Shown here piece after piece: positions 30,809 to 52,600 of a stretch of DNA of 64,000 nucleotides. The DNA is from Aurantiochytrium sp. KH105 (taxonomy: Eukaryota; Sar; Bigyra; Thraustochytrida; Thraustochytriidae): NCBI GenBank assembly GCA_003116975.1, contig BGKB01000138.1, positions 62,001-126,000 on the forward strand. Reading direction: 5' to 3'. Position 1 is the first letter of the stretch, and every line of letters starts with the position of its first letter. The notes beneath the pieces were generated by a model. That model saw only the letters and a list, made by a program, of their open reading frames with translations. It was not told where the DNA came from and did not search any database. Both the position numbers and the translations under genes were made by a program.

Positions 30809-31657
30809 AGTATTCGGCTCGCTGTGGCCGGGAGTATGATGTGAGAGCAGTGTGTGTCTGCTAGCGTGTTGGCGCCCGCATCTCCGAGTATGTTGAATCG
30901 AATTCTGCGCTTGTTCAGTGATATACGATAAGAAGATAATCGGTTGCAGTGCGACGCGTTTGGGCGATCCAATAAGTGACGGAACATGTTATCTATTCAC
31001 CTTCACGAATGCTATTTCTTTCTCTCCGCTATTCATCGCATCGATTGCCTTGACGACTGCATCAGAATCACTGTGATGCGCAACCGTCATTTTGCCGGTG
31101 TTATACGTGCAAGGAGGTTTTCACGCTTGTATTGTTAGTGAAGTACAAGTTCTGCACGTGCACGATCACACGGCAGAGCCAGGGCAGCAGCTTGCGCTGA
31201 ACGATCAACAACGCCTCAAGCGTGGACAGCGGCACAGGTCAGGCTGCGCTCCAAGGCCCGCAACCTAGCGAAGCAGGGATGCCCAGGCGCTCGTACACGG
31301 CGCTTGCGCTCGGCTACGACCTCGGCCCACCTTCTCCGTCATGTGCAAGTATCACGTTTCCTGAGATCGTGACATGATCGTGTGTATGAGCCTCAGAGGT
31401 CAGTGACTTTTAGATTTTGTCTCACTTTCATGGTGGTAAAGACCATTTGTAAATATGTCCTTTGCACTTGCAACCCCCCGCAAGAACTCACATTGTCGTC
31501 CGATCGTTGTCGTCAATCACCGCTGACCAAAGTCCAATCACCGCTGACCAAGTTGTCCAGGGTTCTTGAGCTGCCCTGAGATGGACAACGCATGACAATC
31601 CAGAACTGCAACTTGCGCACGGAGGTGGAGTCTTGGTTGCAAGAATACGCGAACGCC
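30809..31657. other. Intergenic region upstream of GREB1-like A
   Basis: Unique sequence. A 17-bp word CAATCACCGCTGACCAA occurs twice at 31514 and 31535 (21-bp spacing), about 120 bp upstream of the start of gene A. An in-frame ATG at 31592 extends gene A by 22 residues but is not conserved in paralogue B. No TATA box or other gene seen. Confidence 0.5.
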
Positions 31658-34600
31658 ATGGCGAGCGGGGGCGCGAAGGCGCAGGAGGGCGCGAAGGCGC
31701 AGGAGGGCGCGAAGGCGCAGGAGGGCGCGAAGGCGCAGGAGGACGGCTCCGACCGACCTCTTGTGCTCGTGCTCAACGCGAGCCCGGCGACAAGCTTCGA
31801 AGAAGAGGTTGGGAATAGTCCGGAGGCTTTGATTGCGCTTCGAAACGACGTCGACGTCGAGGCGCTCTCGCAACTTTTACGGGTCTGGTGGGTTCCGAGC
31901 GCGGAGGAAGACGATTTGACGGAGATCGGATTGGACGATGTTGCTGGTCTCAAGAGAAAGTACTCGAATGTAGAAGGCCTAGAGCTCTTTGCTCTTTGCC
32001 TCAGCGCATTGCTGGACGATCATGATTCTAAGTTGCTTGAATATAAACCTGATCATCAAAGAGCTCGGATCAGTGCATCTCCTGACAACGAATATGTCGC
32101 GACAGCTCTCAGAGATCTTGCAGCAAAGTCGCTCTCAGCTCCAAGCCGGCACTATTTACTCCCGCTCCGACAGTTCGCAAAAAAGAATCCTCATTTCATC
32201 AAATTCAAAAAAGACTCTGATGATCTGCAAAGTCAGCTGCAGAAAGAACTTTCGCGAAAAGATGCGCCTGGAACTCGCATCGTTCTTTTACGCGATGCGA
32301 GCGACGCTTCGACGCAGAGTGTTCTGCTCGTGTTCACATCCGAAACAGCTCAGAATGTTCGCAGGCTTCTCGAATCGAGTCAAAAAAGGCAGGATGAGGA
32401 GGACATTGCTGAAGAAGCTGACGACGAGACGATAGGTGACGAGGACGAGGCAGCTGATCGGCCTGTACAAATCATCTTTGTCGTGGACAGCGCAAATGAA
32501 GAGGTGAATGGCCAAGAAGGAACCATCGAGCTCATTAGACCACGCTTCGAGATCGATGTGGAACGGCGTCAGATACTCGCAGAGAACCTGCTCACCCCCG
32601 AAGACGCACACGCAGCGAGAGCGTGGGAACAAGTGATTCGCGAGATTGCAAGCTTTGGCTTACCTCTTGCACGGGACTTTCGCGAGCATATCTCAATGAA
32701 GCTTGACAAAGAACATGACAACGAGCTCGACGACGATGATGAAAAACCGGCGCTGATGCGTGTCAAGCTACACGTTAAGAGTGATGCATTCCAGGAGCAG
32801 AGCGCGCTTCGTCAGCAGATCGGCACGCCACAGCCTGATGTTGCGCATCCTGAGCAACGCGAGGTCGCCGAAAAGGTCTTCCGCAAAGCCGAGCAGGTCC
32901 TCTTTGGTCCTTCAGACGCAGACTGGACGTCCAAGTTCAACAGCGTCTCCTTCGTCGTGCTAACACCAAACTTTAACTCCCTGCAGTCCCAGACTGCAGA
33001 CAGAGTCACACGCGCAAAGCTCGAGGGCGGGCGCGTGCTCAAGCACACCAAGGTGCCGCATGCGGCTATGGACGCGCATCAAAAGTGGATGGAAGAGGAG
33101 GTCAAGAACCCAAAGACTCTCTTTGTCATCATCGCTGACGAGTGTCACTTTGCGCCGACGAAAGATGGCGCGCACGACTGGCTTCTCAATAACCCAGCGC
33201 TAATTGGTGAGAATGTACTGCGTCTTCTCGTCTCTGCAACGCCGCAGAACGTACTTTCTAAGACTTCACGGGTTGCCGACGACAACATCGTTCGCTGGTT
33301 CAAGCCCGCCTCGATGTACCGCAGCATGGACTACTACGTCGAGACGGCGACGTGGGCGGTTCCAGGTTACGTACGGCCGCTGAGACTCGCTGCCAATGGA
33401 AAGATTTATGATGTAGACCCGCGTGTGACCACGCATGAAGGTTGCGCATACCGATATCCAATGCACGACTACAAAGCGTTCTGCAGTGTCTTCAATCGCA
33501 GGGTGCGTGAGGTGCTAGGACTGAGTACATTTTTCTCTGTTGTAAACAACGGCATGGAAAAGCTTCCGCTAGCTGTTCCTCGTGATGTTGATCTCGACTT
33601 TGACGAGAATTTCGACATAAAGACGGGCCTGCTATACTGGCTTGGTTTCGAGGACGATCGCGAACGCATTCAATCAGCGCGTCAGAACGCAATGGGAGAT
33701 GGACGCAAACAGTACTACCGAGTTGCTGCATCGGGTATCCCACTTTTCTGCGATACAGCCGGTAATGACAATGTCGTGGACTGCCTTCCACGTCGGCGTC
33801 AGCGTGTACTGAAGGACGACGCCTTTGATGTCGTACGTGGACTCGCAAACAGGTCGTTCGGCAAGCGAGGCGCAGCCAAGCGTAAGCAAAAGGGAATCAG
33901 GGTGGCCGAATCAACTCCTCTCTATGATGGTCACATCATCATGGCAGACTACCTTCTCTCGCTCACATATCTTGCGGTGTATCGGATCGACCATGACAAT
34001 CTCTGGAACAGAGACTTGAGCCGCAAAGATATTTTTGCACCCTTAGAGGAAAATGATGTCAGGCAACTTGCTCTTGACGATGAGAAGCTCAAGGCTTTTG
34101 CTCTTCACCTTGGCTTTACAGATCGGGTATGGCCAGGTGTTGCCCATGAAACAGAGAAAGAAGTGGGGTGCTTCAAGATCGCTGATGGCGTTGAGGAAGC
34201 TTCCGTTCAACACCTTCTCAAGATTCTCCTCGAAGCGACCGTAAGATCAGCATGGTCTGAATTGAGCAACCTGGACGTGGCCGGATGGAAGACCCTCACG
34301 AGACGGCTCAACAGCGAATGGGTCGAAGAAGCAAAGAGTCTTGCAGAAGCAGAAAATCATGATACGCCTGCGCATTGGCGATTCGCTTGGCAGTATGTCA
34401 TCTCTGAGAAGCTGGAACGCAACCGCGAAGATCGCACGGAATCGCAAGGCAACACATCTCAGGCGTGGTACAACGAGACCGATCGTCTCTTGCACGACCT
34501 GCTAGACGTCCATCCCAGGTACAGAACAGGACGCATGGCTGTCATTCGCGTCTACGAGACGGACGAGAATCTCTCGATACAGGACTGTCTCCGCAGCGCA

Positions 34601-37600
34601 TTGAAGAAGCTAGGGCTCACCAGTCACGGACACGGCGGCCTTCTTAGCGTTGTTGCAGACGTTGGTGGCAGCGATGGAAAGAAGAAGCGAACGTCTGAGG
34701 GCAAGGTGGTGCAGAAGGTTGCTCGACGAGCGACAAGTCTTTTCACCCAGCTCGAGCCATGGACGCTGACACGTGACCTGCGGCATCCTTTCAAGCAGGA
34801 CGTGGCGGAAACTGAGCGCGAGACCATTGTTGACCGCGTGAACAAGTCTTTTGCCGAAGCTCAGGCTCAAGATGCTGAGGCACGGAAACATCTCGGAGAA
34901 GCACCTCGTTCTTCACCTTCTAAAGCTGCCCAGAAAACAGCCAAGTACGAGGACCTGGAGAACCTGCCTACGATCGTGATTCTGTGCGAGAAGGGGCGTA
35001 TGGGTGACACTTTTCCGCATTCGTTTCGCTTCCTTGACATCCGCCTGCGCTCATCAAAGACGTACTCGACGTTTGTGCAAGAATTCGGGCGCGTCTGCCG
35101 CTATCCAGGCCTGGACTCCAGCACTGCAGACACCTTTGAGGTCTCTGAGGAAGGAGGCTGGGCGGCGCTTGAGCAACAGCTCGATGACTTTTTCAAGGAT
35201 CCTGAAGTGAGAAGGTATTTTGCCAAAGGCGGGAGCTATGCCGTTATGGACCCGGGCCAGGAGGTGCGTTTTCACGCCGACTCGGAGATGCAGCTCGAGT
35301 CCGGGTTCCGTACGGCCTTGGGGAATATCGATGATGGACGGGCGCGATTTGGCACGTGGACAGCAAAGCGCTATGTGCATGTGCTCCCGACGGTGCTGAT
35401 GAACGCAGAGAGATACAACGCGCAGCTGCAAAAGGCAATTGAGCACAAGTATCGTGATGCCGAAGGACGCCAGCGCATTGATCAGTGCATTCCTGGTCCA
35501 CTTGATCTGTACTTGTCTTCTGGGCGGAGAGGCGCTGCTGCAGAATCGTGCCCTCGATTCGATAAAGGAGAACAAGTCATCGTCAATCCGATGCATGACA
35601 TTGTTGCTTACCGATCAAGAAGTACACAAACGAGTCGGCAAGCTACTCACTACGACAGCGGGCACAGTGATGGTGACGATCCGCGTCGTCTCTTGCTCAT
35701 GGCGCAGTGCCAGCAGGGCAAGACCGGGACATATCTACATTTCCTGCGTTTGCTCAAGGAGCGCGTGGAGATTGCGATTCCAACGCCTCCTGATGCGCTT
35801 CCGTTGGTTGCGCGGGCAGAGTGGACTCTGCCGCACTGGAGGAACCTCATTGTCAACGCTCAATCGCCCGGCTTTCCAGCACTTAGGAGCTCTTACGCGA
35901 TGCCTAAAAAGGGCCAATACCACGCAAGTGTTTTGCAACAACGCACGCTTGCGCTCATGATTGCCAGTGAGAATGGATCTGGCTGGTACAAGGCATATCG
36001 CGACTACTTGCTTGACGAAGATGGCGAGGCAATTGTTTCGAGGGCGGGTCTTGACAAGATTGAAGTGCTTGGTAAGACAGTCGAAGAGCTCGGTGCTCCT
36101 TTTGATGGTTCTCGGTGTACGAATTCTCAACTCGCATTTGACTGTGTCAACTTTGACGGTCGGTTTTCTTCTGCCGAAGGAGATACTCCCGCAAAATCGT
36201 TTCTCCAAAACGACACGGCTCAGCTTCGTGATATTTTGGACAAGCATGCACCAAAAAAAGAAAGCACATCGTTAGGACGTCGGGTACGTATTGCACGTGA
36301 GCACGTTCAACGTCAGCTCTGGGATGCCGGGTCTCGACGCGGACGCATGGATCACCCTAAAGACGGCAGGGCGGACAGCTTTACGCAGTCAGTGACAGCA
36401 GCGAATGCGTATGAGAGCGTCGCTGCTCGATCTACATCTTCAGGCTTCACCAATAAGTACCACCGCAAGCAGTACATAGTCAAGGATGTCAAGCTCGTAG
36501 GCGAGGGTGTCTGCTTGTCGGCACCCTATGCTGGTTTCCATGGTCTGCACCTCAAAGAGGATGGTCGCAGCATGCAGATCAATATCGGGCAGCGCACGCT
36601 CCTCAACGTGAGTCTCTCCCCGGAGACGCGAACCATGAGCACGTTGAATGATGCCACGAACGTTCGTTGGGTGTTCGTGCCCTCGTACAACCGTGCTGGC
36701 GTTGCGCTCGTGGACTACGAAAAGGCGATACCCAGAGACGATAGCGGCAAGCCAACGGTCGTGTGCCTCGTGGTCCGGAGTGGCAAGCAATTCGATAACT
36801 ACGTAGCGGCGTATGGATCCGCTCATCTTATTCTCGGCCTTCCGGAATCGATGGCGTCCAAGACTTCGGAAGGATCTCGCGTCTTCGCAGAACGAGGTGG
36901 CATCGGATATGCTCGGCTGTTCATCCAGCTTGCGGCGCATCAGCTCGGCCTTCCCTGGGTCTGGATCCTCGACGACAACGTCGATGTGTGCTATGAGCGA
37001 AAGCTTGAGGACAAAGTCCCGGCAAATGCACTGAGCGCTCATCCAGATGCATGCTCTTTCTCAACGGTTATGGCAGGCGTCGAGAGTATTGTGCACAACG
37101 AGGATGAAGAACTCGCCCAAGCGCACCAGCAGAAACGCATGAACAAGTGGAAGCCCAATGGCCCCGTGCTTCGGAAAAGGCCAGCTCCTGAAGCGAGCAA
37201 TCGAAATGTACGTTCCAAAGGGGAGCTAACAGGAGGTGCGAATCAGTACGGACTGATTGGGATCCGTCGTGACCCCCGGGCCCGCCAAACAGAGTCCGAG
37301 CATCCGTTCATGGTCACGTATTCGGTGTACTCGTTCATCTACTTGAATGTCACGAGCACAGTGAACGCCGGGGTGTTTTTCCCGATCAAGACGTTTTGGG
37401 AAGACGTGGAGTTCAATCACCTGGTTGATGAGGCTGGCTTGGTTTGCCTCAAGGTGAACCGCTTCTTTCATCACAAGAAGAACCTCAAGCTGAGTGCGAG
37501 AAAGATCAGGGAGCGGGCTGCTGAGATGTCGCCATGCTTCACGGAACTTACGGAGGCGCTGGATCACTTTCGCAAATTGAATGGGGGGTTGAGGCCGGCG

Positions 37601-39940
37601 CCACTCTGGTCGAAAATGATGCCAACGTTTTTCGAGCAAAATAAACTATGGGCGGCGGAGTTCTGGGATCGAATCTCTGGCGAGGCTGATGTGAGGCCCC
37701 CACATGCTTTGCTAACGTGCTTTTTAGAGGTCTCCCGGGATGATGCATATAATCGAATCGTGGTGCGAACGTCTGGAGAACTGTCGAATCTGCTGCTCAT
37801 AGTCCGCGATGACGACATCGATGCGTTTCCTGAGATTGCTGATGCAGACGATGGTATCAATCTCTTGGGCGGAAATAGACAGCTTAAGATTTATCGCAAG
37901 GCACAAGTTCAGAATCCATTCCCGACGCAACTTTTCGTTGTTGGGGCCAACGCTGATCTGCCTTCCTCGTCATCCCAAGGGTCACCGGAGGGCAAATCTC
38001 ACACGGAGACACCTGTGTCCCCTGCCCTCAATATCAAGCACTCGGAAGGTCGGAGACCGCACGCCCCGAACGGGCCACCTCCGGGCCGCATTGGTAAAGA
38101 TTCTCCGGTAAAGAAGCGACGAGGAAGTGCAGCGAGTAGCGCCTCGTCTCCTGATAAACGGTTGAAGAATGACCAGCGTCCCATCAACAGCTTCTTCGGA
38201 AAACGAGACCCTCCTGACAACAAGAAGCGAGATAACAATACGAGCAGCTCGTCCACTGACGGGAATGCGAAACGAAAGCCTGACCCGAGTTCCGATAGCA
38301 TATCCTCCAAGAAGCCACGGAGGACTGGTCCTGGTAATCGTCCTCAAGTAACGCAAGGAGCGCTAGAGTCAGGCTCCGAAAACTCGCAAGCCGCTCGTGA
38401 TCAGGCTGCACATGAGTCCCAACATGGAGAAATGCCCTCCACGCCGCCATCGTCCTCCCAGAGAGAGGAAAAGCAATTTACTCAATCTCCCACACATCCT
38501 TCACCGAGCCCAAACCCTGCCAGTATACCGATGGAAGACGCGCGAGAATTTCTTCGCGCTCAGCTGGAAATGGCACAAGCCAACGATACGCGTCTTCCCG
38601 GGAAGTTTTACAGCCATGCGGCTGCCTTGTTGGAAAGCTGCAAAACCTGGGAGGAGTTCGTGGCAAGCATCAGCTTCAGAGCGTTGCAGCAAAATAAGGT
38701 TTTGCCAGATGGTGAACAAGAAGAGATGAAGAAAGGAATCAATGCAATCAAGGCGAGGCTTATACGAGCGAAACGAGATTACGTGGAGCAGTCCGCGCAA
38801 CCAGGAGGAGTGCGCGCAGCTTCATCACCAGTGACTCCGCCTCGGCCCCGTCCAAAACCTCGCGATCCGTCCCTTGAAGTCGCGCGGGAGTCTATCGAGT
38901 CGTTCAAAGCCAAGGACGTGCGTCTTCCAGGAAAGTTCTACAGCCATGTGAGCGATTTGCTGGGAAGCTGCAGTAACATTTCAGACTTGATGGGAAGGTT
39001 GAAATACCGACAGTTGCAGCGAGACGAGATATTGCCAGGTGGGGATCAGGATGCCATGAAAAAGGCCATTGAGGCTCTGAAAGCGAGACTCAGCCGGGCG
39101 ATGCAAGGTTCGTCTGGTCAGGTCGACGAAGCACAGAGTCGTGTTCCCGCCACATCGATCTCGTCCCAGCAAGCCAACGTTCCGTCTCCGGTTCCTGCAC
39201 CTGCGACTCCAACAACACCACCGCACAACTCACGCTCGCCGCGCCAACAGTCGAATGGCATTCCAATCGAGGCCGTGCGCGCTGCTGTCCTTGCACAGCT
39301 CGCGGAATTCAAAGGCAAAAACACACATCTGCCAGAGAGATTCTATACTTACGCAAAGGAGAAACTGGAAACATCTACCACATTGGCAGAGTTCGTAAGT
39401 GCCACGAGTTTTCGAACTCTGCAGAACGCTGGCATCTTACCGAACGGTGAACAGGAGGATATGAGAAAAGCCATCAATGCGCTCAAGCAGAGGTTTAACC
39501 GAGCTGTGAAAGACGATTCTCCTCTCAAGCATGCGCAAAGTGCAACACCACATAGTCGTTCTACCTCAGCAACCTCGTCTCATCAAGCCAACGTCTCGTC
39601 TCCGGTTCCTGCACCTGCGACTCCAACAACACCACCGCACAGCTCACGCTCGCCGCGCCAACAGCCGAATGGCATTCCAATCGAGGCCGTGCGCGCTGCT
39701 GTCCTTGCACAGCTCGCGGAATTCAAAGGCAAAAACACACATCTGCCAGAGAGATTCTATACTTACGCAAAGGAGACACTCCAAACATCTACCACATTGG
39801 CAGAGTTCGTGAGTGCCACGAGTTTTCGAACTCTGCAGAACGCTGGCATCTTACCGAACGGTGAACAGGAGAATATGAAGAAAGCCATCAATGCACTCAA
39901 GGGGAGATTTAACAAGGTGAAACGTGAATACCTACCATGA
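31658..39940 (+). CDS. Giant GREB1-like permuted helicase-glycosyltransferase A
   Basis: 2760 aa, one exon. The start is chosen because GCCATGGCGAGCG is shared with paralogue B. Order: four 18-bp GAKAQE repeats; a novel domain (RPLVLVLNAS, later LELFALCL), nt 31757-32410; an SF2 helicase with motif II DECH at 33137, SAT near 33232 and motif VI QEFGRVCR at 35078, but motif I QCQQGKT only at 35705-35725, so the core is circularly permuted; a GT-A glycosyltransferase domain at about 36.6-37.5 kb with WILDDN (DDN at 36971, DxD-like) and FWEDVEFN (37394), of the TAGT family to which animal GREB1 C-termini belong; a basic Ser/Pro tail (SPVKKRRGS, KKPRRTG, likely NLS); four ~80-residue C-terminal repeats (38531, 38871, 39259, 39674). 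TAGT enzymes are thought to glycosylate modified DNA bases, and GREB1 has been linked to protein O-GlcNAcylation; the substrate here is unknown. All key motifs look intact. Confidence 0.8.
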   Translation: MASGGAKAQEGAKAQEGAKAQEGAKAQEDGSDRPLVLVLNASPATSFEEEVGNSPEALIALRNDVDVEALSQLLRVWWVPSAEEDDLTEIGLDDVAGLKRKYSNVEGLELFALCLSALLDDHDSKLLEYKPDHQRARISASPDNEYVATALRDLAAKSLSAPSRHYLLPLRQFAKKNPHFIKFKKDSDDLQSQLQKELSRKDAPGTRIVLLRDASDASTQSVLLVFTSETAQNVRRLLESSQKRQDEEDIAEEADDETIGDEDEAADRPVQIIFVVDSANEEVNGQEGTIELIRPRFEIDVERRQILAENLLTPEDAHAARAWEQVIREIASFGLPLARDFREHISMKLDKEHDNELDDDDEKPALMRVKLHVKSDAFQEQSALRQQIGTPQPDVAHPEQREVAEKVFRKAEQVLFGPSDADWTSKFNSVSFVVLTPNFNSLQSQTADRVTRAKLEGGRVLKHTKVPHAAMDAHQKWMEEEVKNPKTLFVIIADECHFAPTKDGAHDWLLNNPALIGENVLRLLVSATPQNVLSKTSRVADDNIVRWFKPASMYRSMDYYVETATWAVPGYVRPLRLAANGKIYDVDPRVTTHEGCAYRYPMHDYKAFCSVFNRRVREVLGLSTFFSVVNNGMEKLPLAVPRDVDLDFDENFDIKTGLLYWLGFEDDRERIQSARQNAMGDGRKQYYRVAASGIPLFCDTAGNDNVVDCLPRRRQRVLKDDAFDVVRGLANRSFGKRGAAKRKQKGIRVAESTPLYDGHIIMADYLLSLTYLAVYRIDHDNLWNRDLSRKDIFAPLEENDVRQLALDDEKLKAFALHLGFTDRVWPGVAHETEKEVGCFKIADGVEEASVQHLLKILLEATVRSAWSELSNLDVAGWKTLTRRLNSEWVEEAKSLAEAENHDTPAHWRFAWQYVISEKLERNREDRTESQGNTSQAWYNETDRLLHDLLDVHPRYRTGRMAVIRVYETDENLSIQDCLRSALKKLGLTSHGHGGLLSVVADVGGSDGKKKRTSEGKVVQKVARRATSLFTQLEPWTLTRDLRHPFKQDVAETERETIVDRVNKSFAEAQAQDAEARKHLGEAPRSSPSKAAQKTAKYEDLENLPTIVILCEKGRMGDTFPHSFRFLDIRLRSSKTYSTFVQEFGRVCRYPGLDSSTADTFEVSEEGGWAALEQQLDDFFKDPEVRRYFAKGGSYAVMDPGQEVRFHADSEMQLESGFRTALGNIDDGRARFGTWTAKRYVHVLPTVLMNAERYNAQLQKAIEHKYRDAEGRQRIDQCIPGPLDLYLSSGRRGAAAESCPRFDKGEQVIVNPMHDIVAYRSRSTQTSRQATHYDSGHSDGDDPRRLLLMAQCQQGKTGTYLHFLRLLKERVEIAIPTPPDALPLVARAEWTLPHWRNLIVNAQSPGFPALRSSYAMPKKGQYHASVLQQRTLALMIASENGSGWYKAYRDYLLDEDGEAIVSRAGLDKIEVLGKTVEELGAPFDGSRCTNSQLAFDCVNFDGRFSSAEGDTPAKSFLQNDTAQLRDILDKHAPKKESTSLGRRVRIAREHVQRQLWDAGSRRGRMDHPKDGRADSFTQSVTAANAYESVAARSTSSGFTNKYHRKQYIVKDVKLVGEGVCLSAPYAGFHGLHLKEDGRSMQINIGQRTLLNVSLSPETRTMSTLNDATNVRWVFVPSYNRAGVALVDYEKAIPRDDSGKPTVVCLVVRSGKQFDNYVAAYGSAHLILGLPESMASKTSEGSRVFAERGGIGYARLFIQLAAHQLGLPWVWILDDNVDVCYERKLEDKVPANALSAHPDACSFSTVMAGVESIVHNEDEELAQAHQQKRMNKWKPNGPVLRKRPAPEASNRNVRSKGELTGGANQYGLIGIRRDPRARQTESEHPFMVTYSVYSFIYLNVTSTVNAGVFFPIKTFWEDVEFNHLVDEAGLVCLKVNRFFHHKKNLKLSARKIRERAAEMSPCFTELTEALDHFRKLNGGLRPAPLWSKMMPTFFEQNKLWAAEFWDRISGEADVRPPHALLTCFLEVSRDDAYNRIVVRTSGELSNLLLIVRDDDIDAFPEIADADDGINLLGGNRQLKIYRKAQVQNPFPTQLFVVGANADLPSSSSQGSPEGKSHTETPVSPALNIKHSEGRRPHAPNGPPPGRIGKDSPVKKRRGSAASSASSPDKRLKNDQRPINSFFGKRDPPDNKKRDNNTSSSSTDGNAKRKPDPSSDSISSKKPRRTGPGNRPQVTQGALESGSENSQAARDQAAHESQHGEMPSTPPSSSQREEKQFTQSPTHPSPSPNPASIPMEDAREFLRAQLEMAQANDTRLPGKFYSHAAALLESCKTWEEFVASISFRALQQNKVLPDGEQEEMKKGINAIKARLIRAKRDYVEQSAQPGGVRAASSPVTPPRPRPKPRDPSLEVARESIESFKAKDVRLPGKFYSHVSDLLGSCSNISDLMGRLKYRQLQRDEILPGGDQDAMKKAIEALKARLSRAMQGSSGQVDEAQSRVPATSISSQQANVPSPVPAPATPTTPPHNSRSPRQQSNGIPIEAVRAAVLAQLAEFKGKNTHLPERFYTYAKEKLETSTTLAEFVSATSFRTLQNAGILPNGEQEDMRKAINALKQRFNRAVKDDSPLKHAQSATPHSRSTSATSSHQANVSSPVPAPATPTTPPHSSRSPRQQPNGIPIEAVRAAVLAQLAEFKGKNTHLPERFYTYAKETLQTSTTLAEFVSATSFRTLQNAGILPNGEQENMKKAINALKGRFNKVKREYLP
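31670..31741 (+). repeat. Four perfect 18-bp tandem units (GAKAQE)
   Basis: GGCGCGAAGGCGCAGGAG repeated four times without change at the N-terminus of gene A, giving (GAKAQE)4. Paralogue B has no such repeat (MASEDAVAQRE), so it arose in A after duplication and is likely length-variable. Confidence 0.85.
39160..39895 (+). repeat. Recent tandem duplication of C-terminal repeats 3 and 4 in A
   Basis: The linker plus repeat at about 39165-39480 recurs at about 39580-39895 (offset 415 bp) with only scattered differences, including an identical SPVPAPATPTTPPH linker and IPIEAVRAAV start. Paralogue B has one such unit here, followed by an unrelated-looking fourth repeat. Confidence 0.75.
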
Positions 39941-41269: not shown

Positions 41270-44200
41270 TCAATCAATCCTTCTCCGCTTCCCACGTCTT
41301 CCAGTACGCTTCTCGTCCTCGTCGTTGTCAATCTCCTTCTCTGCTGACTTGACGTTACTCTCGTTCTTGTCACCTGATCTGCTCGATGCGTCTGAGCTCG
41401 TGCCCGACATCTCTACTGCTGCCGACCTCTTCTCGGCCTTCTTAGCATCCCCCTCCTTTGTTTCAGCTGCTTCAGAAGGCTTTGTGGCATCCTCTTGCAA
41501 GCCAGTGACCTTGCTGATCGACCATACAAGAGATTTTACCTCGTCTGGCTCGCCCCCATTCAGCATTTCAACATACAATGCATCACCACTCCACGATATC
41601 CCGAAACGCCCCTTCCACGTGGTCATGTCCTTCATCTCTTTTTCCAATACACAGGGAATCATGTTCGAAGGCTTTACTTGCTGAACAGCATAACAGAACT
41701 CGCTTCGACAGTTGTCAAGCTTCGTCCTCGGCTCATTGACCTTCCTCATGTACTCTCGGGTCACGAAGACCACAAAAGCTTTGGAACGGTCAATTCCATC
41801 CGCCATCGAATCGAGAATCTCTGTGCCAATATCGTTCTCATCGAGCCAACAGCGGATTCCGCGCTTTTCGAGTGCGGTCGCCACAGCTTTCACTTTGTTG
41901 TGCACCACCTTGTTATCACCCCAGTCGTGAGATAAGAAGACATCGAAAGGCTTGGCATCGCTTGTGACAGACGAATGCAAGCCCCGCGCGGCCTCGCCAT
42001 TCTCCACAAACGGCGAAAACCGTTCCAAAGGAAGTCGCTTTCCCCTTTGCAACGATGAAACTTCTCTCGTTGAAGCATCCATGAAAGCATCGATAGAAGC
42101 ACACGATTCTTTGCTATCGGAGCCATCAGAGCTGAGAAAGAGTTTCGGTCCAAGATTCTTTCTCATGAATGACGAATCGATGCTCTTAAGACATTTCTGG
42201 AGAATCTCAACGTGACTCTTCAGACTCTTGTTCGCGGGTGTCTCAAAGTGAAGCATGATCCGCCTGCCACTCGTTTCCAGAATCATGTTCACACTGTCAA
42301 AGGCAATACTCGCAAAGTTCGAGAATACGACATCTTTTCGCACGCCCACGAGGCCCGGCAACCTCTGTATGAGACTGGCAACGAAGCGTTGAAACACACC
42401 TTTGGGAAGAACCTTGAACTCGATATAAGCCAAAGCGTGTTGCTCGCCCAGGTCGCAAAGTGCCTCTGTCCTGACGTCGTCCTTCACTGGTTGCAAAAGG
42501 CTCGGTATCAAAAGTGCGCCCTCCTTGTCGACGATATCACCTTTCTCGTCGATATCGTCGATCCATGGACTCGGGCATGCCAACAGCATTGCGTGCATAA
42601 GCTCAACAAGGTAATCGACACGTTGTCCTCGCCATAGCCACTCCAGTAGTTGTCGACTGGCAACTCCACGCTCTGACCAGGCATCGAGCGCAACTCTTAG
42701 GTCCCTCGGCAGTTCTTCTTGATACAAAAGCTTCTTTTTGTGCCTTTTCATGTGATTCATGCTCGGGTCGCAAATGACACGCGTTAGGTTTTTCAATAGC
42801 CACTGCGGCCGAATCACAACAGTCTGTCGCAGCACGTCATGCTGGCCTGTCGTCAGGTGCACAAGCACGCCGAGTTCGTGCATGTACTTGAGCATCTCCG
42901 GGACATCCACTTCCGGAACGCGGCACTCTTTGGTTGCCAGTTCCTTTACCACCCGCAGCGACAAGTAATCCTCGTCTTGCGCGAGCAGCTTTTCCAAGCA
43001 GTAGGACCACCGTAATGGTACCTTCTTCTTGACAAAATCTTTGTCGGCAACAGCCTTTGAAAGCGATTCGCGAAGCGACATAATTTGATTGCGCTTGTCA
43101 TCCCGATCGGTGTTGTCGATCGGGAAAAACCAGAGCCGTGCTTCGGCATTCAGCAGCACAACGGGCTTTGCGCCGCAAGGTCTCAGCACTTCCGTCTCTA
43201 AGGAGTCTTCGATCTCCTCGTGATCCTCGGAATCCGGTACCTGGTCCAAATATGTCCCCACGATGGCGATGTTGGCATCCGGTGCGTGCAGACGGATGGA
43301 GTCGATCCAGAAGCGAAGCGTCTCCAAGGAATCCTCTTGCGAGGCAAGCTTGGCGTACTCTTTCTCGTCGAGCTTTTCTTTGAAGCGCTCCTTGCCAAGC
43401 ACCTCGCGCATGTCGAAAACCAGCATGTAGACGCCATATTGCGTCAAGAACAGATGGTGCAGGGCGTAGAAGACTTCCTGCCCACCGTAATCCCAAATCA
43501 TGAAGCTGATCTCGTCATCTAGATTGCTGGCTTTCTCCTTTGCATAATGATGAGTTGAAGTGACGGCTTTGGCAATATCCTTTTGGTCAAATGATTGGTT
43601 CGATGCACTACTCGAGGTAGACACATTGCCAGGAGGTCGAGGGGTCTGCACTACATCATCCGACAAATGTAGGTGGGAATACTCGGCAACGTCCTGCAGA
43701 CGGTACTTGCATTTTGCAAATTGCTCGCCAAGATCAGCGTTGCTGACATGATTGCGTTCTTCCCAGTCACGCGTGCGCATCAACTTGAGGTCAACTCCGA
43801 TTGTTGAGTCATGATCGGGATTGTAAGGTTGACCTAAAAGCGAGCGAATCGTCGAAGTCTTGCCTGCGGCGCCCTTGCCCACGATCATGAGTTTGACGCG
43901 ACCCCAACGCACCTTTGCGTCAGCTAGAAGTGCCTTATATGCGAATTTGCTGGAATCTCTCAACTCTTCCTGCACGAGCTTAACTTGGGTCGCAATACGA
44001 GCGAGTATGCCTGGTGAGATACGACTTGAATGCACACTCTTCAGGCTGTTTTATATGCACATGGTGAGCGTTCAGTTGTCACGTTTTCCTTCGACTATCA
44101 CTTTTTCTGAACGCACCCTAATTTTTGAAGGCTGCTATTGCTTTCCAGCGCAGTCGCTAGAGCTTCCGCTCCGGCGTCGCCAATCCTGTTTCCGCTCAAG

Positions 44201-45879
44201 CTTTGAGATGACATATAGCGAATGTCAGTGGGGTACTGGCCTGCCCGTGCCGAGTCTTTCTGCAACGTACTCAAGATAATTCAGCAGCGACTTATTATCT
44301 TCAAGAGCATCTGCAAGCGCCTTTGCGCCATCATCGCCGATGTTGTTTTTCCAAAGCCTGCGCTCATACAATTTGGACAGTATCGTGAACGAGAACGTGC
44401 ATGACGTAGTTTTACAATGATGGACGGCAGCGTCGTGCATCCATTCAGTGCGATACGTTTTTGGCAACATGCTTGCTGGTCAGTCATTTTTCATCCTTGC
44501 GGACAGTCTCTCTTTGCTCGCTGCCACTTACTCCAGCTTCTGTAGCGTTTTGTTTTTCGTGAGTGCATCCGCGAGCGCCTTTGCGCCATCATCGTCAATG
44601 TTGTTATGCCGAAGCCTGCGCTCATACAATATGACCAATGGCGTGAAAAAATCAAACATGCAGAGTATAGCGTACAAACAATTGCAGACAGTGTTATACA
44701 TACGTTTCGTGCGATAAGAGTATTGTCACGTACTTGCTGGTCAGTCGTTCCTGCTTCTTGCGCGCAACCCTTCTTTCCTCATGATCACTTACTCTAGCGT
44801 CTGCAGCGACGAGTTCTTTGCAAGCGCCTTTGCCAGCGCTTTGGCGCCTTCGGCGCCGACATTGTTATAAGTAAGCCTACAACCATGCGATGTAGACAAT
44901 GTGATAAATAAATGTGCAAAGCGCAGTGTCAGAATAATTCACAACAGCGTTGTGCATGGGTTTTGTAAAAAAGATTTATCGCGACGTGTGCTTGCTGTTC
45001 AGTCGATCTTGCTCCTTACACATAGTATCTCTTTCCTCATTGTCACTTACCACAGCATTAGCAGCGACTTGTTCTCTTCGAGCGCATCCGCTAGCGCCTT
45101 TGCGCCATCTGGACCGATTTTATTAGAACCAAGCCTGCGCTTGTGCGTCAATGACAATGTTGCAAACCGAACCGTGCACGGCGAAGTGTAAAAACCATTT
45201 GACGACAGTGTTTGACGCGAAAAGATTATTGCAATATGCTCGCTGATCAGTCATTCTTATTCTTTGCGCACGATTTTTCTACCCTCACTGTTACCTACCA
45301 GAGCGTCTGCAGCGACGAGTTTGTTGCGAGCGCCTTGGCCAGATGCTTCACGCCATTATCGCCAAGATTCATATCCCCGAGACTGAGCTTGTGCATGATG
45401 GACAGTATTATAAAACAAAGGTGTATAGCGCAGTGCAGGAACCATTGACGGCAGCGTTGTGCGTCCATTTGTAGTGATAAGTTCATCCCAACGGTCTGCT
45501 GGTCAGTCGTTCTTGATCCTTGCGCGTAGTTCATCTTTAATCGCTGTCACTTACTCTAGCTCTCGCAGCGATTCATTCTTTGCAAGCATATCTGCTAGCT
45601 TTTTTGCGCCATCCAAGCTGATTTCAGTTCCTCCGAAACTACGCTCGAACATCATGAATAATGTGGTGCAAAAATGCAAAGTCGTGGAAAGTCACCAAAG
45701 AAGATGACATAGGTATCACGGCCATACAATTTTTGAAACGTTGCGTTGTAACGCGCATGACGGTCAGCGAATCTCACATGCTATGTCTTTGTGCCGTTGT
45801 TGACGTACCATAGCTGCTTGGCGTCTTGAGGCATTAATTTGATCGCGTCCTCAACTCCTTTCGCGTCCATTATATCCAT
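41270..45879 (-). CDS. LRR-ROCO-TIR receptor-like GTPase, eight exons
   Basis: Exons (minus strand order): 45879-45809, 45638-45555, 45382-45299, 45134-45051, 44876-44793, 44615-44532, 44357-44271, 44045-41270; 3354 nt, 1117 aa. All introns are phase 2 with GT-AG ends. Exon 1 gives MDIMDAKGVEDAIKL...; exons 2-7 each encode one 28-29-residue RNI-type LRR (for example LRHNNIDDDGAKALADAL). Exon 8 encodes a Roc GTPase (P-loop GKGAAGKT 249-256, WDYGGQE as G3, VGTYLD as G4), a COR domain (about 530-750), and a C-terminal TIR domain from about 888 (FDVFLSHDWGD, RCWLDENDIG, CRSEFCYA with the Glu at the usual NADase position), ending in basic RRGKRRRID. Predicted cytosolic sensor: LRRs bind a ligand, Roc-COR switches, TIR signals or cleaves NAD. 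It lies antisense between GREB1-like A and B. Confidence 0.85.
44271..45638 (-). repeat. Tandem exon-intron array, six LRR units of ~257 bp
   Basis: LRR exon starts lie at 45638, 45382, 45134, 44876, 44615 and 44357: spacings 256, 248, 258, 261, 258 bp. Five exons are 84 nt and the last is 87 nt. The introns (164-177 nt) are also related to each other, sharing words such as GGTCAGTC followed by TTCTTG/ATCCTTGCG on the plus strand. So the repeating unit is exon plus intron, made by tandem duplication. Confidence 0.85.
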
Positions 45880-46647
45880 CGCTTGCCTCTACGTATCAGT
45901 AGAACGAGGTGACGTCAGAAAGCAGTAACGTGTTTTGTCTGACGTGTTATTGTGCCCTTCGGATGACTACAAGGGTTGCAAAGCACGCGGGGGAAACAAG
46001 TGAAAAGCTGCAAAGAGGTGGAGTCGTTGTCGACCACGACGCCTAGAAGTCTTCGAATCAGCTTGCGACCGGGTGTGCTACGTGTTCGTAGAGCGCGAGC
46101 AAAAACGCCGCCTCACAGCCGTCTGGCGCGGCGAGCATACAGCGAGATGGGCAAGCAGGTCCCAGGAGCACGTGCAGCACGCCGACGACTCGCGATTGGC
46201 GATTTTTGCTGTTGATTGATTGCCCGTTTGTTTGCAACGAACTTTAAATTGCGTTTTGCAGACCGCGGCAAAGATCCAAAAATAGCCCCATCAGGAAATT
46301 TTTCACTGGCAGCCTTTCCCTTCATCGCTTGCTCGCAATCACCATCCACAATGAAATTTTTTACAAACTTCGTCAGCGTCTTGCCGAGATTTCATCGCGT
46401 CAACCCGACGCCACCATGACTCGATCACGACTGGCCGACTTTGTGTTTCCCACGGCTACTGCACCTGCAACCGACTTCGACCAGCCATGGCAGCTGTTAC
46501 TCCACTGCTCCTGTGTCCATTCTTTTATACCCACATTTCACCTACTCATAGTCGTAGAGAGGGTGATTTTATACCCACCCAGTAGTATAAAAGATGGTGT
46601 CACGTCGACTTCGCCGCGGCTTTGCTTGCGAGCAAACGCGAACCGCC
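45880..46647. other. Divergent promoter region of ROCO gene and GREB1-like B
   Basis: 0.77 kb between the ROCO start (minus) and B start (plus). Apart from the TATA-like box listed next nothing is recognised; short open frames here are not convincing. Confidence 0.5.
46586..46593 (+). promoter_or_regulatory. TATA-like box of GREB1-like B
   Basis: TATAAAAG ends at the A of the in-frame ATG at 46594. Transcription starting ~30 bp downstream would exclude that ATG and favours the ATG at 46648 as the start of B, in agreement with the start context shared with A. Confidence 0.45.
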
Positions 46648-49600
46648 ATGGCGAGCGAGGACGCGGTAGCCCAGAGGGAGAGCTTCGACCGGCCACTTGT
46701 GCTCGTGCTCAACGCAGACTCGGCGACGAGTTTCGAAGAAGAGGTCGAGAACAGTCCAGAGGCTCTAAGAGTGCTGCAAAACGACGTACGAGTTGAGGCG
46801 CTCCCGCAACTTTTACGAGTATGGTGGATTCCTGACGCGGAAGACGGCGATCTGCCGAATTTTGGGTTGGACAATGTTGCTGGTCTCAGACACATATACC
46901 CGCAAGGACAAGGACTTGATCTCTTTGCTCTTTGCCTTTGGATTATCATTCGAGACACACCCGGTAATCTACTTCGCGTACGTCAAGATGGGCAGAGTGC
47001 AGAGATTGTCGCATCTGAGCGTACCAAGGACATCGTGGAGACTCTTAGGGACCTTGTGTCGAGAACAGCTTCTCAATCCGTAGAATCATTGAGAGTCTCG
47101 CACGAAAATGAGGCAGAGTGTGAAACGTCTTTGATTGAGTTTGACGAGTCCGAGGATCTGCCAGCTCAGCTTCGAGCAGAACTGAAAAGGACTAGTGCTC
47201 CGCATATTCGTGTCATACTCCTTCGCGATTTAGTCGGCGATACCTCGCAATGTCTTCTTCTCGTGTTCACATTACCTGAAACAGCTCAAATCATTCGTGG
47301 TCTTCTCGATTCGAGTCAAAAAATCTCAGACTTGGTGGACATTGCTGAAGAAGCTGGTAACGAGACAGAATTCGGGGGCAACATATCCGATGGCAACATA
47401 ACTTCATATTGGCTTGTAGAAATCGTCTTCATCGTATACAGCTCAAATGAAGAAGTGAATGGCCAAGAAGGAACCATCGAGCTCATCAGACCTTGCTTCG
47501 AGATCGAGCTGGAATGGCGTCAGAGGTTCGCGAAGTCGCTGCTCACCTCCGCAGGCGCACACGCAGAGAGAGCTTGGGAACAAGTGACTCGCGAGATTGC
47601 AAGCTTTGGCTTGTCTCTTGCACAAGACTTTCGCGATCATATCTCAATGAAGCTTGACGAAGAACGTGACAACGAGCTTGACGTCAAAGAAAAACCGGCG
47701 CTGATGCGTGCCAAGCTGCACGTCGAGAGCGATGCCTTTCAGGAGCAGAGCGTGCTTCGCAAGTGGGTCGGCACGCCACAGCCTGATGTTGCGCATCCTG
47801 AGCAACGCGAGATCGCCGAAGAGGTCTTCCGCAGGGCTGAGCTGGCCCTCTTTGGTCATTCAGACGCAAATTGGACGTCCAAGTTCGACAACGTTTCTTT
47901 CGTCGTGCTAACACCAAACTTCAACTCCTTGCAGTCCCAGACTGCAGACAGAGTTACACGCGCAAAGCTCGAGGGCGGACGTGTGCTCAAGCACACCAAG
48001 GTGCCGCATGCGGCCATGTACGCGTACCGAACACGGATGGAAGAGGAGGCCGAGAACCCGAAGACTCTCTTTGTCATCATCGCCGACGATTGTCACTTCG
48101 CGCCGACGAAAGATGGCGCACACGACTGGCTTCTTAACAACCCAGCGCTGAGTGGTGAGAATGTGCTTCGCTTGCTTGTCTCTGCAACGCCGCAGAACGT
48201 GCTTTCTCAAACTTCACGAATTGCCGACAAGAACATCGTTCAATGGTTCAAGCCCGTCTCGATGTACCGCAGCATGGACTACTACGTCGAGACGGCGACG
48301 TGGGCGGTACCAAGTTACGTACGGCCGCTGAGACTCGCTGTCAATGGGAAGATTTATGATATAGACCCGCGTGTGACCACGTATGAAGGTTGCGCATACC
48401 GGTATCCGATGCACGACTACAGAGCGTTCTGCAGTGTCTTCAATCGCAAGGTGCACAAGGAGCTGGGCCCGAGCTTGGCAAGTGAGCTGGTTTCGGTTCA
48501 AGGTGGTAAGGAGAGCTTGTTGCTGGTCGTTCCTCATGATGTTGACCTCAACTTTGACCAGAACTTCGACGATAGGGGTCTTCTATGCTGGCTCGGTTTC
48601 TGGCTCGATCGTGCACGCATCAACTCGGCACGACAACGTGCAATGGGAGGACAACGACAGCAAAAATACAGAGTTGATGCATCGAGTATCCCACTCTTTT
48701 GCGACACAGTCGGCAACAATCATATTGTGGACTGTCTTCCACGCCGGAGGCAGCGTGTACTTAAGGACGAGGCCTTTGATGCCGTACGCGAACTCGCAAA
48801 TTTGGCTTTCGGTAAGCGAGGACATCAAAAGCGTAAGCAAAAGGGGATCAAGGTGGCCAAGTCAATGCCTCTCTACGATGGTCATATAATCATGGCAGAC
48901 TACCTTCTCTCGCTCACATATCTTGCGGTGTATCGGATTGACTCTGTCAATCTCTGGAACAGAGACTTGAGCCGCGAAGATATTTTTGCACCCCTAGAGG
49001 AAAATGATGTGAGGCAACTTGCCCTTGACGATGAGAAGCTCAAGGCCTTTGCTCTTCACCTTGGCTTTGCAGATAGAGTATGGTCAGGTATTGTCCACGA
49101 AACAGACAAAGAAGTGGGGCGTTTCGAGATCGCTTATGGCGTTGAAGCAGCCTCCGTTCAACACCTTCTCAAGGTTCTTCTCGAGGCGACCGTGAGGTCA
49201 GCATGGTCTGAATTGAGCAACCAGGACGTGGCCGGATGGAAGGCCCTCACGAGACGGCTCAACAGCGGATGGGTCGATGATGCAAAGAGTCTTGCAATAG
49301 CAGAAAATTATGATACGCCTGCGCATTGGCGATTCGCTTGGCAGTATATCATCTCTGAGAAACTGGAACGCAACCGCGAAGATCGCACGGAATCGCAAAG
49401 CAACACATCCCAGTCGTGGTACAACGAGACCGATCGTCTCTTGCACGACCTGCTCGACGTCCATCCCAAGTACAGAACAGGACGCATGGCTGTCGTTCGC
49501 GTCTACGAGACGGACGAGAACCTTTCGATAGAAGACTGTCTCCGCAGTGCACTGAAAAAGCTAGGGCTCACCAGTGACGACCATGGCGGCCTTCTCAGCG

Positions 49601-52600
49601 TTGTTGCAGATGTTGGTGGCAGCGATGGGAAGAAGCGAATGTTTGGAGGCCAGGAGGTGCAAAAGGTTGCTCAACGCGCGACAAATCTTTTCACCCAGAT
49701 CGAGCCATGGACACTGACACGCGACCTGCGGCATCCTTCCAAGCAGGACGTGGCGAGAACTGAGCGCGAGACCATTGTTGACCGCGTGAATAAGTCTTTT
49801 GCTGAGGCAAAAGCACAGGAGGCTGAGGCACGAGCACAGGAGGCTGAGGCACGGAAACATCTCAGAGAAGGATCTCGTCCTTTACTTTCTAAAGCTGTCC
49901 AGAAAACAGCCAAGTACGAGGACCTGGAGAACTTGCCCACCATCGTGATCATGTGCGAGAAGGGGCGCTTGGGTGACACCTTTCCGCACTCATTTCGCTT
50001 TCTAGATATCCGTCTGCGCTCATCAAAGGTGCACTCGACGTTTGTGCAAGAGTTCGGTCGCGTCTGCCGCTATCCAGACCTTGACTCCAGCAGTGCAGTT
50101 ACCTTTGAGGTCTCTGAGGAAAATGGATGGGCGGCGCTTGAGGAAGAGCTCGAGCAATTCTTCAAGGATCCTGAAGTGAGAAGGTATTTTGCCAAAGGCG
50201 GGAGCTATGCCGTCTTGGATCCGGGCGGCGAGGTACGTTTCCACGCCGATTCAGAGCTGCAGCTCAAGTCCGGTTTCCAAAAGGCCTGGGACAAACGCGA
50301 TGATGGACGGGCGCGATTCGGCACGTGGACAGTGAAGCGCTATGTGCATGTGCTCCCGACGGTGCTGATGAACGCAGAGAGATACAACGCGCAGCTGCAA
50401 AAGGCAATTGAGCACAAGTATCGTGATGCGGAAGGACTTCAGCGCATTGATCAGTGCATTCCTGGTCCACTTGATCTGTACTTGTCTTCTGGGCCGAGAC
50501 GTGCTGCCGCAGCATCTCGTCCTCGAGTTGAAACCATTGATGAAGAGAAAGTCGTCATCAATCCGATGCATGACATTGATGCTTACCGATCAAGAAGTGC
50601 ACAAACGAGTTGGCAAGCTACTCACTACGACAACGGGCACAGTGGTGGCTGTGATCCACGTCGTCTCTTGCTCATGGCGCAGTGCCAGCAGGGCAAGACC
50701 GGGACATACCTACATTTCTTGCGTTTGCTCAAGGAGCGCGTGGAGCTTGCGATTCCAAGCCCTCCTGATGCGCTTCCGCTGGTTCCGCGGGCAGAGTGGA
50801 CTCTGCCGCACTGGGAAAATCTCATTGTTAGCGCTCAACCACCTGGCTTCCCAGCACTTGGCAGCTTCTACGCGATGCCTCAAAAGGGCCAATACCACGC
50901 AAGTGTTTTGCAACAACGCACTCTTGCGCTCATGATTGCGAGTGAGAATAGATCTGGCTGGTATGAAGCATACCTGAACTACTTGCTTGACGAAGATGGC
51001 GAGGCTATTGATTCGAGGGCCGGTCTTGACAAGATTGAAGTGCATGGTAAGACAGTCGAAGAGCTCGGGGCTCCTTTTGATGCTTCTCAGTGTACGAATT
51101 CTCAACTCGCATTTGACTGTGTCAACTTTGACGGTCGGTTCTCTTCCAAAGAAGGAGATGCTCTCGCAAAGTCGATTCTGCAAAGCAAACACAACACGGC
51201 TCAGCTTCGCGACATTTTGGACAAGCATGCAAAAAAAACAGGCACATCGTTGGGACATCGAGTACGCATTGCATGTGAGCACGTTCAACGTCAGCTCTGG
51301 GATGCCGGGTCTCGACGCGGAAGCATGGATCAGCTTGAACTCGGCGGGGCGGACAGCTTTACGCAGTCGACGACAGCAGCGAATGCCTATGAGAACGTCG
51401 CTGCTCGGTCCACATCTTCAGGCTTCACCGGAAAGTACCATGGCAAGCAGTATGTGGTCACAGACGTCAAGCTTGTGGACGAGGGTGTCTGCTTGTCTGC
51501 ACCCTATGCTGGTTTCCATGGCCTGAATCTCAAAGCAGATGGTCGCAACATGCAGATCAAGGTCGGACAGCGCAAGCTCCTCAACGTGAGTCTGTCCCTG
51601 AAGACGCGAACCATGAGCACGTTGGATGATGCCACATCCGTTCGTTGGGTGTTCGTGCCCTCGTACAACCATGCTGGCGTTGCGCTCGTGGACTACGAAA
51701 AGGCGATCCCCAGAGACGATAGCGGCAAGCCAACGGTCGTGTGCCTCGTGGTCCGGAGTGGCAAGCAATTCGATAACTACGTAGCGGCGTATGGTTCCGC
51801 TCATCTTATCCTCGGTCTTCCGGAATCGATGGCGTCCAAGACTTCGGAAGGATCTCGCGTCTTCGCAGAACGAGGTGGCATCGGATATGCTCGGCTGTTC
51901 ATCCAGCTTGCGGCGCATCAGCTCGGCTTTCCCTGGGTCTGGATCCTCGACGACAATGTCGATGTCTGCTATGAGCGAAAGCTTGAGGACAAAGTCCCGG
52001 CAAATGCACTGAGCGCTCATCCAGATGCATGCTCTTTCTCAACGGTTATGACAGGCGTAGAGAGTATTGTGCACAACGAGGATGAAGAACTCACCCAAGC
52101 GCACCAGCAGAAACGTCTGGAGAAGTGGAAGCCCAATGGGCCCGTGCTTCGGAAAAGGCCAGCTCCTGAAGCGAGCCATCAAAACGCACGTACCAAAGAG
52201 GAGCTGACAGGAGGTGCAGATCAGTACGGACTGATTGGGATCCGTCGTGACCCCCGGGCCCGCCAAACAGAGTCCGAGCATCCGTTCATGGTCACGTATT
52301 CGGTGTACTCGTTCATCTACTTGAATGTCACGAGCACAGTGAACGCCGGGGTGTTTTTCCCGATCAAGACGTTTTGGGAAGACGTGGAGTTCAATCACCT
52401 GGTTGATGAGGCTGGCTTGGTTTGCCTCAAGGTGAATCGCTTCTTTCATCACAAGAAAAACCTCAAGCTGAGTGCGAGAAAGATCAGGGAGCGGGCTGCT
52501 GAGTTGTCGCCATGCTTCACGGAACTTACGGAGGCGCTGGATCATTTTCGCAAATTGAATGGGGGGTTGAGGCCGGCGCCACTTTGGTCGAAAATGATGC

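What the first reader, a model, noticed from the sequence alone, without database searches (positions are those of the whole stretch)
41270..45879. LRR-ROCO-TIR gene with one LRR per symmetrical phase-2 exon
Six LRRs sit on six exons of 84 or 87 nt, all bounded by phase-2 introns, and the introns are homologous to each other. Any unit can be skipped, duplicated or exchanged without a frame change. Brown-alga LRR-ROCO genes are known for one-LRR-per-exon arrays and proposed exon shuffling in immune receptors; here the same layout is fused to a C-terminal TIR domain. It may be a variable receptor.
Basis: partly seen in the sequence, partly recalled or inferred. Interest (0 to 1): 0.85.

Follow-up and report, generated by a model that had tools for sequence, protein, structure and literature searches.

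The report
Variable LRR-Roco-TIR receptor gene family
The gene belongs to a large family of probable recognition receptors in an unnamed eukaryote, built from interchangeable one-repeat exons; the copy in the window looks stable, but sister genes differ in repeat number between what appear to be the two parental chromosomes and change fastest where a ligand would be expected to bind.

Summary
The exon layout is real. The genome holds at least 21 near-full-length paralogues or alleles with 242 mapped LRR exons. The assembly appears to carry two haplotypes. At the window locus both have seven LRR exons and no amino-acid change at predicted ligand-facing positions: this copy is static. Elsewhere arrays vary: a well-supported allele pair has 11 versus 15 LRR exons, a probable pair 6 versus 10. 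In that active subfamily the five predicted concave positions change 2.2-3.8 times faster than silent sites, depending on pairing. The intron splits the central concave residue, so each junction builds a hybrid binding strand. This is the exon module of animal NOD/NLRC genes on a Roco-TIR protein, in a genome where no light-harvesting protein was found. Brown-algal LRR-ROCO genes are alike but use 72-nt exons without TIR. Heritable diversification is supported; splicing variation, somatic change and immune function are untested.

The parts
45809..45879 (-). exon 1 (71 nt), start codon at 45879, N-cap of the LRR domain
   Evidence: ends in phase 2 at GT
45555..45638 (-). LRR exon 1, 84 nt, phase 2-2
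45299..45382 (-). LRR exon 2, 84 nt, phase 2-2
45051..45134 (-). LRR exon 3, 84 nt, phase 2-2
44793..44876 (-). LRR exon 4, 84 nt, phase 2-2
44532..44615 (-). LRR exon 5, 84 nt, phase 2-2
44271..44357 (-). LRR exon 6, 87 nt, penultimate LRR exon; an 87-nt exon sits at this position in 17 of the 21 genes mapped (not in L013-L016)
44117..44200 (-). LRR exon 7, 84 nt, last LRR exon
41270..44045 (-). last exon: Roc GTPase, COR-A, TIR domain and charged C-terminal tail, stop included
   Evidence: Pfam; gene model
44358..45554 (-). span holding the five introns of 164-177 nt between LRR exons 1-6 (LRR exons 2-5 lie in it too), repeated together with the exons
   Evidence: (families D1-D3)

Best explanation
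It is one member of an expanded family of probably cytosolic LRR-Roc-COR-TIR receptors whose binding surface is assembled from one-LRR exons. Shown by sequence: the LRR exons are frame-neutral 84/87-nt cassettes; the phase-2 intron falls in the central residue of the predicted concave beta-strand, so the strand is made half by one exon and half by the next; arrays differ in number and order between paralogues and between presumed alleles, which implies heritable gain, loss and rearrangement of cassettes; in the active subfamily the five concave positions are diversified while scaffold, Roc-COR and TIR stay under purifying selection. Inferred: the LRR arc binds a ligand, binding releases the Roc-COR GTPase switch, and the TIR domains assemble and signal, perhaps by cleaving NAD+, in defence against microbes or in self/non-self recognition. 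The window gene is a member whose specificity is fixed at present.
For: Pfam Roc, COR-A, TIR_2. 21 places matching at least 830 of 926 residues in one piece; P-loop GK(G/S/A/V)AAGKTS and the TIR Glu in a C(R/C)xEF context in 21 of 21. 242 LRR exons in these 21 genes, 225 of 84 nt and 17 of 87 (the scan only admits phase-2 exons of 81-90 nt). Array sizes from 4 to at least 30, leaving out L015 at a contig end. Alleles 11 vs 15: L003/L008 align over the gene, upstream and about 4.9 kb downstream, and a piece about 37 kb away on C41 has only two places in the genome, C41 and C16. Probable alleles 6 vs 10: L013/L014. Concave diversification in L003/L004/L005/L008, pairs matched on both flanking introns, 11 within-gene pairs: 5' concave pN 0.411, 3' concave pN 0.434, scaffold pN 0.066, scaffold silent 0.191, introns 0.120; concave dN over scaffold dS 2.79 (bootstrap 1.70-4.56); the other five pairings of that call give 2.16-3.77. 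The five most changed of 28 positions are exactly the five expected, in all three pairings. Roc-COR-TIR dN/dS 0.21-0.52 in the 53 pairs with dS below 1.2.
Against: The window gene and its presumed allele are invariant in array and at concave sites; L004/L005 (8/8) and L006/L007 (12/12) are also static between alleles, with 2 of 85 and 3 of 131 concave changes. In the L017-L021 group pooled within-gene pairs give concave dN/dS of 0.72 and 1.22, or 1.73-2.16 with one of three intervals reaching 0.97. Within-gene values of other genes (L001, L006, L007, L009, L010, L012) lie between 0.92 and 1.99, mostly with intervals that include 1 or on 2 pairs only. Introns change less than silent sites in most pairs, so ratios to introns are inflated. 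Four of the 21 matches (L006, L007, L012, L019) contain one stop codon. No expression, ligand or phenotype data.
Confidence: 0.7

Rival explanations
1. The window gene has a conserved, non-immune signalling or scaffolding role; the cassette layout is an inherited relic and diversification is confined to a few sister genes.
For: Zero concave changes and equal arrays between L001 and L002; its LRR units show long branches among themselves and pair one-to-one with L002 in the unit tree.
Against: Roc-COR-TIR dN/dS between the two alleles is 0.52, the highest of the 53 pairs listed, not the mark of a strongly constrained gene. Its LRR units differ more at concave than at scaffold sites (pN 0.570 against 0.226, 2 pairs only).
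Confidence: 0.22
2. The repertoire is expanded further by alternative splicing: skipping any LRR exon keeps frame and creates a new hybrid concave strand and a new split codon.
For: All LRR exons of the window gene are symmetrical phase 2. Non-adjacent joins that would create a stop at the split codon are 9 of 1,503, against a mean of 27.4 in 2,000 shuffles across genes, P 0.0025. Brown-algal ROCO genes and human NLR genes splice their LRR exons alternatively (PMC11378527, sections 11 and 15 read; PMC6642158, abstract passages and section 6 read).
Against: No transcript data. The shuffle mixes genes with different acceptor bases, and adjacent joins are constrained anyway (0 stops), so the deficit is weak evidence.
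Confidence: 0.2
3. Concave codons are changed by a targeted process (gene conversion from other units or a local mutator) rather than by ordinary mutation and selection.
For: In 13 within-gene pairs codons 2, 3, 5, 26 and the last two exon bases differ at 0.44-0.67 per nucleotide while introns differ at about 0.1. Nearest exon and nearest downstream intron can point to different partner units, for example L003 unit 3: exon L008 unit 7, intron unit 12.
Against: Intron bases next to the exon ends are not or only mildly raised (0.00-0.21 per nucleotide), which argues against a simple local mutator; selection alone can give such ratios.
Confidence: 0.1
4. The allelic differences in exon number are assembly artefacts of a tandem repeat.
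For: Tandem arrays are prone to collapse; the assembly method is unknown.
Against: Most units differ by several percent, so collapse is less likely, though L008 units 8 and 12 and L014 units 7 and 8 are close; several allele pairs assemble to equal arrays on separate contigs.
Confidence: 0.06

Closest known systems
Brown-algal LRR-ROCO genes (Zambounis 2012, not held, recalled and via citation; Teng 2024, PMC11378527: abstract, passages, sections 10, 11, 15 read)
   Same: Tandem phase-2 exons with one LRR each before Roc-COR; shuffling; positive selection at concave sites; large family
   Different: There 72-nt exons with a 23-aa LRR and LRR-ROC-COR only; the 17-residue LRR core appears to lie inside one exon (my inference from their site numbers). 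Here 84 nt, 28-aa RI-type LRR, the strand split by the intron, TIR at the C-terminus, no light-harvesting match. The paper reports no more than four ROCOs per species in the other SAR species it searched.
Animal NOD/NLRC LRR exons (Hoss 2019, PMC6642158: passages and section 6 read)
   Same: One 28-aa RI-type LRR per frame-preserving exon; exon border at a fixed position within the beta-sheet
   Different: Those sit behind a NACHT domain (recalled); here Roc-COR and TIR, and no NACHT match in the last exon
TPR-ROCO-TIR of the red alga Chondrus (PMC11378527, section 10) and TIR-ROCO proteins of Aplysia (PMC9334734, passages read)
   Same: Roc-COR combined with TIR
   Different: One-LRR exon arrays are not mentioned in the text I read
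Lamprey variable lymphocyte receptors (recalled)
   Same: LRR cassettes between fixed end modules; variable concave face
   Different: VLRs are assembled somatically; nothing here shows somatic change

Membership tests
Roco proteins | Roc GTPase directly followed by COR | tested here: met
   Pfam Roc 1.7e-18 and COR-A 3e-10, in order; P-loop in 21 of 21
LRR-Roco | N-terminal LRR domain | tested here: met
   Seven LRRs in the predicted spliced frame; PDB matches to RI/NOD2-type LRRs; splicing itself not observed
Brown-algal LRR-ROCO | 72-nt LRR exons | tested here: not met
   Window gene: six of 84 nt, one of 87. Family: 225 of 84 and 17 of 87 among 242, but that scan admits only 81-90 nt; a 75-nt exon was seen in L010/L012 by a wider scan
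Brown-algal LRR-ROCO | phase-2 symmetrical exons | tested here: met
   eight of eight introns in the window gene
Brown-algal LRR-ROCO | diversified concave positions | tested here: met
   Met in the L003/L004/L005/L008 subfamily; not between alleles of the window gene
Brown-algal LRR-ROCO | LRR-ROC-COR as the only domains | tested here: not met
   C-terminal TIR_2, 1.5e-15
Animal NLR (NOD/NLRC) | one 28-aa RI-type LRR per exon, border in the beta-strand | tested here: met
   strand position mapped from the LRR consensus (recalled numbering), not from a structure of this protein
Animal NLR (NOD/NLRC) | NACHT domain | tested here: not met
   no NACHT among families at E up to 0.1 in the 926-aa last-exon frame; the remainder is LRR
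TIR NADases | TIR fold with catalytic glutamate | tested here: inconclusive
   Pfam TIR_2 1.5e-15; a Glu conserved in 21 of 21, its catalytic role recalled and not aligned to a solved structure; weak PDB matches, 3h16 TIR protein E 3e-4 and AbTIR E 0.035
Somatically assembled receptors (VLR-like) | different arrays in different cells | not testable with these tools
   one assembly only

The most novel reading that the evidence does not exclude
A combinatorial receptor repertoire in which each splice junction writes a new concave binding strand: the phase-2 intron cuts the central contact residue, so unit gain, loss, exchange or exon skipping produces hybrid strands and new contact residues (17 amino acids seen at the split codon over the 21 genes), possibly also differing between cells.
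Probability: 0.15. Interest if true: 0.9.

Novelty: new variant of a known kind. Interest (0 to 1): 0.64.

Why it matters
It brings together the NLR-type LRR exon cassette and brown-alga-style ROCO diversification, with a TIR domain, in a genome that is neither animal-like in this architecture nor, by the light-harvesting test, photosynthetic. One apparently diploid genome already gives static and changing alleles, so the question whether non-animal eukaryotes use exon cassettes for variable recognition becomes directly testable by long reads and cDNA.

Tried and rejected
No light-harvesting family hit (PF00504), so a brown alga is unlikely. Close relatives by protein in prokaryotic genomes: 17 stretches matched a pattern, none confirmed; none in viral contigs; no collection of eukaryote genomes is on hand.

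A first reading that exons change while introns stay identical (L014 units 6 and 7) was rejected as a unit-boundary effect: when pairs are matched on both flanking introns, units 7 and 8 are the recent duplicates and have identical exon proteins. Ratios to introns used a permissive aligner and are not relied on; and one search used a stricter one with coverage of at least 0.88.

Literature searches: within the held open-access library only. No listed paper describes LRR exon arrays in Roco-TIR genes, but I judged most from titles and abstract starts, and two lists were cut (10 of 53, 8 of 44). Zambounis 2012 is not held.

Full report
What is there. On the minus strand between 45879 and 41270 lies a nine-exon gene: a 71-nt first exon, seven LRR exons (six of 84 nt, one of 87) and a 2.8-kb exon with Roc, COR-A and TIR. 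All eight introns are phase 2 with GT...AG ends, and none is open if retained. The predicted protein has 1,145 residues. The scan that finds the exons gives one unrelated hit elsewhere in the window and 1 in 20 scans of shuffled windows.

A family, not a single gene. The window's own genome (76 Mb, 367 contigs) gave 59 matches to the Roc-COR-TIR part, a lower bound since 49 of 244 candidates were scored. 21 of them cover at least 830 of 926 residues in one piece; four of these (L006, L007, L012, L019) hold one stop codon; further places are broken, partial or more distant (about 32-37% identity for most of the last group). I mapped LRR exons in those 21: 242 in all, 225 of 84 nt and 17 of 87. 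The scan admits only phase-2 exons of 81-90 nt, so the phase is tested independently only in the window gene; a 75-nt exon was seen in L010/L012, and gaps of 309-625 nt in some arrays may hide others. L015 lies near a contig end and the L017, L018 and L021 arrays are incomplete. Array sizes run from 4 in L016 to at least 30 in L021. The window exon-intron unit finds 98 places by DNA, including a stray unit on C17 that is 98% identical to part of L006 over 340 bp. Similar 84-nt arrays also lie just before open frames with ankyrin and weak SAM matches on C128 and C340, so the cassette seems to be used with a second architecture.

Two haplotypes. Many LRR_6 hits fall in contig pairs. The window's Nup85 gene has exactly two places, C138 and C69, 98% identical, and C69 repeats the block GREB1-like, Roco, GREB1-like in inverted order. 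L002 on C69 is therefore most simply the allele of the window gene (Roc-COR-TIR dN 0.032, dS 0.060). L003 on C16 and L008 on C41 share flanks on both sides, about 4.9 kb downstream included, and a piece about 37 kb away on C41 has only two places, C41 and C16, at a matching distance and orientation. They have 11 and 15 LRR exons; their Roc-COR-TIR dS, 0.204, is high for alleles of this genome. L013/L014 (6 and 10) share both flanks at about 95%, but L015 also shares the 3' flank at 85-87%, and the far synteny test led to another contig, C92, with partial matches on C56 and C27, so their allelism is probable only. Equal arrays: L001/L002 7/7, L004/L005 8/8, L006/L007 12/12, L010/L012 7/7, L019/L020 19/19. 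For L004/L005 both contigs also carry a second Roco fragment 132-135 kb away; the pairs L006/L007, L010/L012, L017/L021 and L019/L020 rest on flank similarity alone.

Where change falls. The LRRs are of the ribonuclease-inhibitor type; among the best solved relatives are ribonuclease inhibitors and a NOD2 structure (5irm, whose name as NOD2 is recalled). By the LRR consensus (recalled numbering) the concave strand residues are 26, 28, 2, 3 and 5 of the unit. Residue 28 is the codon split by the intron, so each strand is encoded by the end of one exon and the start of the next. In the subfamily L003/L004/L005/L008 the five most changed of 28 positions are exactly these five. With pairs matched on both flanking introns (11 within-gene pairs) concave pN is 0.41-0.43, scaffold pN 0.066, scaffold silent 0.191, introns 0.120, and concave dN/scaffold dS 2.79 (1.70-4.56); with 12 pairs drawn also across genes, 2.16 (1.45-3.09); pairing on one intron gives 2.53-3.77. 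L013/L014: 6.9 on only 3 pairs. Against this, three allele pairs with collinear arrays show no excess: L001/L002 0 of 73, L004/L005 2 of 85, L006/L007 3 of 131 concave nonsynonymous sites changed, and the L017-L021 group gives 0.72 and 1.22 with one aligner and pairing and 1.73-2.16 with another. Most other genes taken singly are near 1-2. Diversification therefore goes with unit turnover and is not seen at the window locus.

How it most likely works. The LRR arc binds; the Roc-COR part (P-loop in 21 of 21; dN/dS of the whole Roc-COR-TIR exon 0.21-0.52) acts as the switch; the TIR, with a conserved Glu in 21 of 21, signals, perhaps by NAD+ cleavage. The binding and signalling steps are inferred from family knowledge. 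Heritable unit turnover is supported by comparison of alleles and paralogues; splicing and somatic variation are not tested.

Comparison. The layout matches two known kinds at once: brown-algal LRR-ROCO arrays (72-nt exons, no TIR; PMC11378527) and human NOD/NLRC genes (one 28-aa LRR per exon, border fixed within the beta-sheet; PMC6642158). It belongs to the Roco family. It fails the brown-algal definition on exon length and on TIR, and the NLR definition on NACHT. I file it as a new variant of a known kind.

Noticed in passing
window 31580-39940 and 46591-54861 (+): Two single-frame giant ORFs (2,786 and 2,756 aa between stops) with cpSF2-GREB1 helicase and TET-associated glycosyltransferase matches flank the gene; 14 matches, about 12 loci by my count, these two included, clustered on C96, C182, C69 and C138. 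Possible DNA-modification genes.
   Followed up: partly
L072:578-917 (C17): A single stray LRR exon with its introns, 98% identical to part of L006 over 340 bp, in a 1.5-kb stretch with no other LRR exon found.
   Followed up: partly
L068, L071 (C128, C340): 84-nt phase-2 LRR exon arrays in front of open frames with ankyrin and weak SAM matches, apparently a second gene type using the same cassette.
   Followed up: partly
L010, L012: An LRR exon of 75 nt, and upstream flanks that align to each other in many registers, so probably tandemly repeated.
   Followed up: no
whole genome G000: Many genes occur in pairs on two contigs, so the assembly appears to hold both haplotypes.
   Followed up: partly
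window 33-28500: Other ORFs match ferric reductase, VWA, TRAPPC10, kinesin, SpoU methylase and Nup85; two of the eight scanned had no match.
   Followed up: no
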